Below are positions 57,624 through 59,935 of a DNA stretch of 64,000 nucleotides, piece after piece; the first letter of the stretch is position 1; each line of letters begins with the position of its first letter. The DNA lies in the NCBI RefSeq assembly GCF_009733845.1, contig NZ_WNXZ01000006.1, positions 186,001 through 250,000 of the forward strand. The letters run 5' to 3'. Position numbers and translations under genes: made by a program. The notes beneath the pieces were generated by a model. The model saw only the letters and a program-made list of their open reading frames with translations, had not been told where the DNA came from and made no database searches. The stretch is from Pseudactinotalea terrae. GTDB lineage: Bacteria; Actinomycetota; Actinomycetes; Actinomycetales; Beutenbergiaceae.

Positions 57624-58142
57624 TCAGCTGCGCACGCTGTGCACGAGCTGGCGCTCGACGTGCGCCACGACGCCCGCGGCTGCCGCCACCACCTGCTGGT
57701 AGGCGATCTCGAAGTCGCGCCTGTCGCCGTAGTACGGGTCGGCGACCTCGAGGTCGTCCTCGGCGACCGACGCGGGGTCGAACGAGCGCAGCAGGTGGAT
57801 CTTCGCGTGGGCGTCCTCGTCAGGGGCGAGGGAGTGCAGGGCGCGCAGGTGCCCGTTGTCGAGCGCCAGCACGAGGTCCACGCGTGCGAAGTGCTCCGGC
57901 GAGAAGACGCCCGCCCGGTGCTCGGCCAGGTCGAGCCCGTGGCTCTTGGCGACGGCGCAGGCGCGGTGGTCCGCACCCTCGCCCTCGTGCCAGCTTCCGG
58001 TCCCTGCTGAGCACACCGACACCTGGTCCGCGAGGCCGGCCAGGGCGAGCGCGTCCTGCAGGACGACCTCCCCGAGGGGTGAACGGCAGATGTTTCCGCT
58101 GCATACGACGCAGATCGAGTATTCCTCGGCCATGCGCGCCAT
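57624..58142 (-). CDS. Low-molecular-weight protein-tyrosine phosphatase
   Basis: A 172-residue phosphatase with the CX5R active site CSGNICRSP (Cys14, Arg20) and the general-acid Asp in VADPYYGDRRDFE. Actinobacterial homologues (PtpA, PtpB types) act in signalling or polysaccharide export. Start at 58142 is supported by AACGAT seven bases upstream; ATG at 58133 is an alternative that removes three residues. Confidence 0.88.
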   Translation of the reverse strand: MARMAEEYSICVVCSGNICRSPLGEVVLQDALALAGLADQVSVCSAGTGSWHEGEGADHRACAVAKSHGLDLAEHRAGVFSPEHFARVDLVLALDNGHLRALHSLAPDEDAHAKIHLLRSFDPASVAEDDLEVADPYYGDRRDFEIAYQQVVAAAAGVVAHVERQLVHSVRS

Positions 58143-58283
58143 TCTCACATCGTTGCGCCGGTGCTGATGTCCACAGGTGCGGGCTGATGTCCCCTTGTCC
58201 ACAGCACCCCCCGGCGGGGCGGGCGAGCGGTCGACGGCGATCCCTAGCGTCGGGGCTCCGGGGATCGAGCAGGAGGAGGGCAC

Positions 58284-58538
58284 GTGGGGCAGGCGGCAGT
58301 GGTCTCGGCGTTGGCGGACGAGGTCGAGGAGGTAGCGGGGGAGCTCCGCCGTGCCGTACCCGGTCACTGGACGGGCCGGGCGGCGCAGAGCTACCAGCGC
58401 AGTGCTGCGAACCTGGCCACGGGGGTGGGCGTCCACGCGGCGCGGATGCGCGGGCTGGCGCGGTTGCTGCACCAGCACGAGCAGGAAGCGGCGGCCATCC
58501 GCACCGCGCTCGCCGGTGGCGGGTCGGTGGCCGTATGA
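58284..58538 (+). CDS. Small WXG100-like helical-hairpin protein
   Basis: An 84-residue protein predicted to be two helices joined by a turn carrying HWTGRAAQSYQ, i.e. W-x-G followed by the usual aromatic residue, as in WXG100 proteins of type VII secretion systems. The helices contain VSALADEVEEVAGELRRAV and HAARMRGLARLLHQHEQEAA. Strong AGGAGGAGGG ribosome site. It overlaps the hydrolase gene by ATGA, implying that the two products act together, although no type VII core genes are in this window. Confidence 0.65.
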   Translation: MGQAAVVSALADEVEEVAGELRRAVPGHWTGRAAQSYQRSAANLATGVGVHAARMRGLARLLHQHEQEAAAIRTALAGGGSVAV

Positions 58539-59935
58539 GTGGCGTCGGGCCGGTGATGGACGGCTCCCCGAGCGGCGGTGAAGAGCTCCGGTCCGAGCGG
58601 GAGCTCACGGTCTTCGGGCAGGGGATCGGGAGCTCGGTCGATGTCGACGTCAGCACGGATGACGTGCGCTCGTGCGCCGCACGGGTCCGCACGCTGGCGG
58701 GGCGGCTCCGTGAGCAGGCCCACCGCGTGCGGGTCACGTTGTACGCGGTCTCCTCGACGGCGCAGCTCACCGCGAGCGGTCCCGCTGCCATGTCCGAGGG
58801 CTGGTCTCTGGTGGGCGAGGGCGATCGGCGCGCGAGCGAGCTCGATGACCTCGCCGAGCGGCTGGAGGCGACCGCCCAACGGTACGAGGAGGTCGAGGCG
58901 GCCAACGAGGCGCGGATCTGGAGCATCCCGCGGCCGGCGTGGATCCCCGGGCCGCTGACCTGGGTGCACCTGGGTGCCGCGTGGCACGCAGGCGTGTGGG
59001 ACGCGCTCATGCACGGGCAGGTGTTCCCCACGAGGCACGGGATCGGGATGCTGCTCGAGGAAGGGCTGTGGGCGTTCACCGGGATGGAGCAGCCGATCCC
59101 GCCGGTCACCCGGATGGTCGCGGACCTGGCCGGGCTGCTGGTCACGCACCGGGTGAGCGTGCGGCAGGTGAACCCGCCGGGGGTGGGCACTCTCGATACG
59201 CCGCCAGCCGCCGACGAGCACGCCGCGATCAGCGACCTCGAGGGGATCGTGCACGCGATCGACGGGCTCTACCCCGACAACGGCCTGGTCGAGCCGGGCA
59301 CCGTGCGCATCGACCAGGTCGTCAGCGCCGAAGGCGCGGTGTCATGGTTGGTGCTGGTCCCGGGTACACAAGGCGACCTGGTGGGGGACCAACCGTTCGA
59401 CTGGGCGGGTAACCCCGGTGCGATGATCGGCGACATGACCGGCGCTACCGCGATGGTCGTGCAGGCCATGCGGATGGCGGGGATCAGGCCCGGCCAGGAC
59501 GTGGTCATCGCCGGCCACTCACAGGGCGGGATGGTCGCCCTCAACGCGGCGGGCGCCGTCGCCGAGGAGTACGACGTCAGCGGCGTGCTCACGCTCGGTG
59601 CGCCGGTCGGGCTGCTCGACGCACCCGAGGGCGCAGAGGTGCTCAGCATCGAGCACGTCGAGGACCCGACCCCCGGGGCCGACAACGCCGCGAACCCCGT
59701 GAGCGAGAGCTGGACGACGGTCGAGCGCACCCTCACCGACTCCGTGGACCCTGACACCTCCGGCGTATGGCACCCGGGTGGCTCCCATGACACGCCCACC
59801 TACGCCGACACGGCCGGCCTGGTCGATGCCTCCGACGAGGGCGCGGTGCTCGACTACCTCGACGTGGTCGCGCCGGTCCTCGACCCGACCGCCAGCGCCC
59901 TCAGCACCTACTACCAGGGCACCCGCACCGACTGA
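58535..59935 (+). CDS. Alpha/beta-hydrolase-like protein with N-terminal helical (ESX-like) domain
   Basis: A 466-residue protein. Residues 35-125 form long helices (VDVDVSTDDVRSCAARVRTL, ASELDDLAERLEATAQRYEE) like those of WXG/PPE partner domains. Residues 265-345 contain a lipase-like core with nucleophile elbow GHSQGG (Ser329) preceded by ATAMVVQAMRMAG; a late His lies in WHPGGSHDTPTYAD. There is no signal peptide. It may be an esterase exported with its WXG-like neighbour, but substrate and export are inferences. Confidence 0.7.
   Translation: MSGVGPVMDGSPSGGEELRSERELTVFGQGIGSSVDVDVSTDDVRSCAARVRTLAGRLREQAHRVRVTLYAVSSTAQLTASGPAAMSEGWSLVGEGDRRASELDDLAERLEATAQRYEEVEAANEARIWSIPRPAWIPGPLTWVHLGAAWHAGVWDALMHGQVFPTRHGIGMLLEEGLWAFTGMEQPIPPVTRMVADLAGLLVTHRVSVRQVNPPGVGTLDTPPAADEHAAISDLEGIVHAIDGLYPDNGLVEPGTVRIDQVVSAEGAVSWLVLVPGTQGDLVGDQPFDWAGNPGAMIGDMTGATAMVVQAMRMAGIRPGQDVVIAGHSQGGMVALNAAGAVAEEYDVSGVLTLGAPVGLLDAPEGAEVLSIEHVEDPTPGADNAANPVSESWTTVERTLTDSVDPDTSGVWHPGGSHDTPTYADTAGLVDASDEGAVLDYLDVVAPVLDPTASALSTYYQGTRTD

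What the first reader, a model, noticed from the sequence alone, without database searches (positions are those of the whole stretch)
58284..59935. WXG-like protein translationally coupled to a hydrolase with an ESX-like helical domain
An 84-residue W-x-G hairpin protein overlaps by four bases a 466-residue protein with N-terminal long helices and a GHSQGG lipase core. This looks like a secreted-effector pair comparable to type VII substrates, where a small WXG partner forms a heterodimer with the helical domain of a larger enzyme. No secretion ATPase is nearby, so the pair may use a distant system or work inside the cell.
Basis: partly seen in the sequence, partly recalled or inferred. Interest (0 to 1): 0.55.

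Follow-up and report, generated by a model that had tools for sequence, protein, structure and literature searches.

The report
Widespread type-VII-style secreted hydrolase pair
Two overlapping genes encode a small helical partner and a lipase-like enzyme that together carry the two halves of a type VII export signal; the pair is conserved across a large order of actinobacteria, away from any secretion machine, and has no name in the family databases searched.

Summary
P0001 (58284-58538) and P0002 (58535-59935) overlap by ATGA. The enzyme has homologues in 23 of 24 genomes of the bacterial family and 360 of 396 of the order (346 at E<=1e-10). A W-x-[GSA] helical protein lies upstream in 22 of 22 family loci and 46 of 47 order loci examined, usually with a 4-base overlap. 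The enzyme keeps Y-x-x-x-D/E at one column in 66 of 69 homologues and a Ser/Asp(Glu)/His triad in 68 of 69; the small partner has the W but no YxxxD/E (0 of 21). The enzyme's N-domain profile finds EsxB structures (E 2e-6). The two halves of the type VII signal are thus split between partners, as in PE/PPE. The genome has EccC/EccD, an EssC-like ATPase and an orphan FHA-FtsK ATPase, none in the window. The one family genome without the pair has two EccCs but lacks the orphan ATPase. Conserved synteny (35 of 40 loci) and no immunity gene suggest a housekeeping exported hydrolase, not a toxin. Secretion, dimer and substrate are untested.

The parts
58271..58279 (+). Shine-Dalgarno-like AGGAGGAGG before the small gene
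   Evidence: sequence
58284..58538 (+). P0001, 84-aa W-x-G helical hairpin partner (GTG start)
   Evidence: helix-turn-helix model mean pLDDT 90; weak sub-threshold matches to EspA_EspE and WXG100; dN/dS below 1
58368..58376 (+). WTG motif (residues 29-31); W29 invariant in 20 of 20 aligned partners
58535..59935 (+). P0002, 466-aa hydrolase with N-terminal EsxB/EspC-like hairpin; starts in the ATGA overlap
58640..58918 (+). N-terminal helical domain (residues 36-128)
   Evidence: sub-threshold EspC match over 36-128; family profile finds EsxB structures over its positions 30-124, E 2e-6; helices 41-79 and 83-129
58883..58897 (+). YxxxE motif (Y117, E121), the other half of the type VII signal
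   Evidence: strict Y + D/E in 66 of 69 homologues; Y117 is the most conserved column of the N-domain
59513..59530 (+). GHSQGG nucleophile elbow (Ser329)
   Evidence: S in 69 of 69
59663..59665 (+). Asp377, presumed catalytic acid
   Evidence: D 66, E 3 of 69
59786..59788 (+). His418, presumed catalytic base
   Evidence: H in 68 of 69 at this column; the remaining one (L026) has a His one residue away

Best explanation
The pair is a type VII-type substrate. The small protein and the helical hairpin at the enzyme's N-terminus fold together as a two-chain, four-helix bundle, made in equal amounts by translational coupling. This places WxG (on the partner) beside YxxxE (on the enzyme), forming the composite signal that an FtsK/EccC-type ATPase recognises; the folded pair is exported and the C-terminal alpha/beta-hydrolase (Ser329/Asp377/His418) then acts on an ester, most likely a lipid, in the cell envelope or outside. 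The machine is encoded elsewhere; the best candidate is the orphan FHA + three-P-loop ATPase on contig 8, ahead of the EccC/EccD locus (contig 11) and the EssC-like locus (contig 10). Shown by computation: gene layout, conservation of both half-signals and of the triad, relation of the N-domain to EsxB, presence of the ATPases, wide vertical conservation. Inferred: dimer, export, choice of ATPase (about 0.45 within this reading), substrate.
For: Upstream W-x-[GSA] partner in 22 of 22 family loci and 46 of 47 order loci, mostly with a 4-base overlap. YxxxD/E on the enzyme 66 of 69, on the partner 0 of 21. Profile match of the N-domain to EsxB (E 2e-6), weaker to PE25 and other ESAT-6-like proteins. 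Serine triad 68 of 69. No Pfam or NCBIfam family over its cut-off in any of 22 enzymes. Type VII ATPases in the genome. The published composite WxG/YxxxD-E signal in PE/PPE pairs, passages read in PMC7028111. Orphan ATPase: matched in all 23 family genomes with the pair, no such match in the only one without it, although that one has two EccCs (ORFs read in 18). In the order, all 112 genomes whose best EccC-model match is in the orphan's score range have the pair; 0 of 50 pair-negatives are in that class.
Against: No export, dimer or enzyme assay exists. Pfam WXG100 and EspC cut-offs are not reached. The profile of the small partners does not find WXG structures significantly (best ESAT-6-like E 0.16). 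No linkage: 0 of 40 neighbourhoods up to 20 kb hold a type VII ATPase. 30 of 50 pair-negative genomes have EccC/EssC-class ATPases, and 7 of 346 pair-positive ones show none of the three classes (3 of these 7 are fragmented or incomplete; only two candidates per genome were scored). That the weak-scoring ATPase outside the family is the same orphan protein was not verified: the direct searches failed. Three sampled homologues lack a strict YxxxD/E (L081, L082, L108).
Confidence: 0.62

Rival explanations
1. The same substrate pair, but exported by the canonical EccC/EccD system on contig 11 or the EssC-like system on contig 10; the orphan ATPase correlation reflects shared ancestry only.
For: EccC scores over the curated cut-offs and has EccD and ESAT-6-like genes beside it; EccC over cut-off in 18 of 24 family genomes.
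Against: Having an EccC/EssC-class ATPase does not predict the pair in the order (227 of 346 vs 30 of 50, Fisher p 0.43). The family genome without the pair has two EccCs.
Confidence: 0.2
2. The pair works inside the cell: the partner is a chaperone or activator of a cytosolic or membrane-attached serine hydrolase, and the ESX-like bundle is a leftover fold.
For: No signal peptide by inspection, no linked secretion genes, core-gene synteny with metabolic genes.
Against: A tyrosine and an acid five residues on stay fixed in an otherwise variable domain, exactly the known export motif, and the W stays on the other chain.
Confidence: 0.12
3. An antibacterial type VII toxin like TslA or LXG effectors.
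For: Lipase-like domain fused to a type VII helical domain with a small partner, as in TslA (PMC10730906, abstract and introduction read).
Against: No immunity-like gene: downstream is a convergent holin-like gene conserved in most loci. Same locus and same enzyme domain order-wide, the opposite of polymorphic toxins.
Confidence: 0.05

Closest known systems
PE-type lipases of mycobacteria (LipY) and PE/PPE pairs
   Same: YxxxD/E helical hairpin fused to a serine hydrolase, WxG on the other chain, export by a type VII system (recalled plus passages of PMC7028111)
   Different: No PE, PPE or PE-PPE (PF08237) family match over cut-off; partner is an 84-aa hairpin, not a PPE protein; EspG family (PF14011) not found in the own genome; unlinked to ESX loci; monoderm hosts
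TslA/TlaA1/TlaA2 (Staphylococcus)
   Same: Lipase with a type VII helical domain and small helical partners (PMC10730906)
   Different: TslA has the helical domain at the C-terminus, an immunity lipoprotein and two partners; here N-terminal, no immunity gene, one partner
LXG effectors with Lap partners
   Same: N-terminal helical domain plus small partners encoded just upstream; candidate substrates in new type VII variants also have adjacent WXG100-like genes (PMC11217815, section read)
   Different: LXG toxins vary in the C-terminal domain and have immunity genes; this family is uniform and immunity-free
EsxA/EsxB (WXG100) heterodimers
   Same: Hairpin fold, W motif, YxxxD/E; N-domain profile finds EsxB
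   Different: Here one partner carries a 330-residue enzyme and the two signals are on different chains

Membership tests
Type VII (ESX-type) substrate pair | helix-turn-helix partners | tested here: met
   small protein model pLDDT 90; enzyme residues 41-129 two helices, pLDDT 56-83
Type VII (ESX-type) substrate pair | W-x-G in one hairpin turn | tested here: met
   W invariant in 20 aligned partners; third position G, S, A or D
Type VII (ESX-type) substrate pair | YxxxD/E after the second helix | tested here: met
   66 of 69 enzymes; absent in 21 of 21 partners
Type VII (ESX-type) substrate pair | EccC/EssC-type ATPase in the same genome | tested here: met
Type VII (ESX-type) substrate pair | heterodimer and ATPase-dependent export | not testable with these tools
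   the structure tool folds single proteins; no experiment
Pfam WXG100 (PF06013) | score over the gathering cut-off | tested here: not met
   17.2 bits against 27.3
Pfam EspC (PF10824) | score over the gathering cut-off | tested here: not met
   21.2 bits against 23.5 for the enzyme N-domain
PE / PPE / PE-PPE hydrolases | Pfam PE, PPE or PE-PPE domain match | tested here: not met
   no PE or PE-PPE match at E<=0.001 in 22 enzymes; PPE only below cut-off in 2 of 20 partners
TslA lipases | lipase first, helical targeting domain last | tested here: not met
   helical domain is N-terminal
Antibacterial toxin with immunity | adjacent immunity gene | tested here: not met
   convergent holin-like gene and hisC downstream
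Abhydrolase_8/DUF1023 (PF06259) | family match | tested here: not met
   no match in the own genome
Serine alpha/beta-hydrolase | GxSxG nucleophile elbow plus acid and His | tested here: met
   68 of 69; Foldseek top hits are alpha/beta-hydrolases but none at E<=0.001

The most novel reading that the evidence does not exclude
A minimal, housekeeping branch of type VII secretion in Actinomycetales: one orphan FHA-domain, three-P-loop ATPase, encoded alone, exports one enzyme-partner pair from a fixed core locus, with the export signal split between the two chains and no EccB/D/E needed nearby. Genomes keep or lose the ATPase and the pair together, whatever canonical EccC/EssC systems they have.
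Probability: 0.33. Interest if true: 0.75.

Novelty: new variant of a known kind. Interest (0 to 1): 0.58.

Why it matters
Type VII secretion outside mycobacteria and Bacillota is poorly charted. This would be an order-wide, chromosomally fixed type VII enzyme pair that no Pfam or NCBIfam model covers, in harmless soil and marine bacteria where it can be tested easily. It offers a clean case of a composite signal split over two chains, and a candidate function for the orphan FHA-FtsK ATPases.

Tried and rejected
EspG-like middle gene: 9 of 47 order loci have a 190-280-aa gene between the partner and the enzyme. It looked like EspG by eye, but 9 of 9 give no Pfam match, its profile finds no solved structure, and hhalign against 14 EspG sequences gives probability 0.3%. 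Rejected; the gene is unidentified.

DUF1023/Abhydrolase_8: no match in the genome. Antibacterial toxin: no immunity gene, vertical synteny.

Fold search of the enzyme: mean pLDDT 43.7, so the hits (alpha/beta-hydrolases, EsxA homologues; best E 0.014) are only indicative.

In some searches only 4 and 2 candidates per genome were scored; the best score agrees with the fuller in 24 of 24 family genomes. One 'weak class' genome, G014, also holds a split EssC-like gene. The Fisher tests ignore phylogeny and genome size. The 50 negatives are the 36 without any match plus 14 with only marginal matches (E above 1e-10).

Rows dropped: G018 (one of the 23 family genomes with the pair) was not in alignment A1; L026's partner was read by eye, because the overlap script missed it, and is not in A2; L024's partner, near-identical to L022's, was left out of A2; L091 ends at a contig edge.

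Full report
The two genes. The window lies on contig 12 (186001-250000) of a 4.76-Mb genome of 15 contigs. Its congener G013 shares its contig length with Pseudactinotalea suaedae NZ_WNXY01000013.1, so the organism is probably a Pseudactinotalea. P0001 (84 aa) and P0002 (466 aa) overlap in ATGA. Both are under purifying selection. P0001 has only sub-threshold matches to EspA_EspE, WXG100 and PPE; P0002 has sub-threshold EspC over residues 36-128 and several alpha/beta-hydrolase models around the GHSQGG motif. None of 22 homologous enzymes is over a Pfam or NCBIfam cut-off as far as the tables show.

Conservation. P0002 has homologues in 23 of 24 genomes of the family and, by profile, in 360 of 396 genomes of the order at E<=0.001; 14 of these are marginal, leaving 346. 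I read 22 family loci and 47 order loci chosen from different genera among the listed matches, so the sample leans to better-scoring ones. All 22 family loci have an upstream small protein with W-x-[GSAD]; the overlap is 4 bases in 19 and 1 base in 2, and one (L026) overlaps by 11 bases. Of the 47 order loci, 37 have the W protein directly upstream, 9 have it one gene further up behind an unidentified 190-280-aa gene, and one ends at a contig edge. The enzyme start overlaps the preceding gene by 4 bases in 42 of 47.

The split signal. In 69 enzymes, Y117 is the most conserved column of the N-terminal domain (67 of 69), and D or E follows at +4 in 68; both together in 66. Exceptions: L081 (L), L082 (F), L108 (Q). 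The 21 small partners examined by script have no YxxxD/E, and W is invariant in the 20 aligned. WxG occurs somewhere in the N-domain of only 4 of 47 order enzymes. [quoted passage not shown] PPE proteins lack YxxxD/E (passages of PMC7028111). The enzyme here is therefore PE/EsxB-like and the small protein supplies the W. The profile of the enzymes finds EsxB chains at E 2e-6 over the full hairpin. The profile of the partners finds nothing significant.

The enzyme. Ser329, Asp377 and His418 are present in 68 of 69; L026 has the His one place off. The model shows strand-elbow-helix order around Ser329 but is of low confidence. An ester or lipid substrate is inference from weak model names (PGAP1, cutinase, lipase).

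The machines. The genome has nine FtsK/SpoIIIE-domain matches. On contig 11 a 1330-aa EccC is over both curated NCBIfam cut-offs, next to EccD, an ESAT-6-like gene, an FHA/RDD gene and a second hairpin gene. On contig 10 there is an FHA EssC-like ATPase with WXG-like genes. On contig 8 a 1122-aa protein has an FHA domain, a hydrophobic stretch by inspection and three P-loop regions, closest to EssC/EccC but far under their cut-offs, with no EccD-like or WXG gene recognised in the 16 kb around it. I call it the orphan ATPase.

Which machine. In the family, EccCa matches in the orphan's score range occur in all 23 genomes with the pair; 18 were read as ORFs, a few split or cut by contig ends. 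G023, the only genome without the pair, is a single contig with two EccCs and no such match. In the order I classed genomes by the best EccCa score: of 346 pair-positive genomes, 227 are EccC/EssC class, 112 have only the orphan's score range, 7 neither; of 50 pair-negative ones, 30, 0 and 20. EccC/EssC class does not predict the pair (p 0.43); any type VII-type ATPase does (p 1e-14); the orphan-range-only class is found only with the pair (p 3e-8). These tests ignore relatedness. That these ATPases outside the family are the orphan type is likely but unverified, because the direct search failed.

Neighbourhood. In 35 of 40 neighbourhoods (up to 20 kb) at least two neighbours from this window recur: an aminoglycoside-phosphotransferase-like gene, a low-molecular-weight phosphotyrosine phosphatase, a convergent holin-like gene, hisC and the two dehydrogenase subunits. 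The five exceptions all belong to one family, f17. None of the 40 has a type VII or FtsK-type ATPase there. Such vertical stability and the absence of an immunity gene argue against a polymorphic toxin.

Novelty. Searches of the paper library for type VII secretion with Micrococcales and hydrolase (none), with FHA, FtsK and orphan and with WXG100, hydrolase and YxxxD showed no title or abstract describing this family; subscription papers and preprints are largely not covered. The nearest published cases are LipY (PE lipase), TslA and LXG effectors with small partners (PMC10730906 abstract and introduction; PMC11217815 abstract and one section; PMC4536007 search listing only). I rate it a new variant of a known kind.

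Noticed in passing
L045:4187-5990 (-), G000:C2:38387-38965, second copy at G000:C7:1526839-1527417: A paralogous hydrolase in the same genome carries its own WXG hairpin (FAWTG) fused in cis at the N-terminus, beside rbfA/truB. The identical hits on two contigs, both near contig ends, suggest an assembly duplication.
   Followed up: partly
L083, L086, L090, L093, L096, L101, L103, L108, L111: An unidentified 190-280-aa gene lies between the W partner and the enzyme in 9 of 47 order loci, overlap-coupled on both sides in most; it matches no Pfam family and is not detectably EspG.
   Followed up: partly
L043:5723-9091 (-): Orphan FHA plus three-P-loop FtsK/EssC-like ATPase, conserved in all family genomes with the pair; its second and third P-loops have Arg for the Walker Lys in the consensus.
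   Followed up: partly
window 57624-58127 (-): A low-molecular-weight phosphotyrosine phosphatase gene lies divergently next to the pair and is kept there in many relatives.
   Followed up: partly
L042 (G000:C10:147000-166000): A second, EssC-like system with FHA, MoxR/DUF58-like and several WXG-like genes, including a hairpin fused to a longer tail.
   Followed up: no
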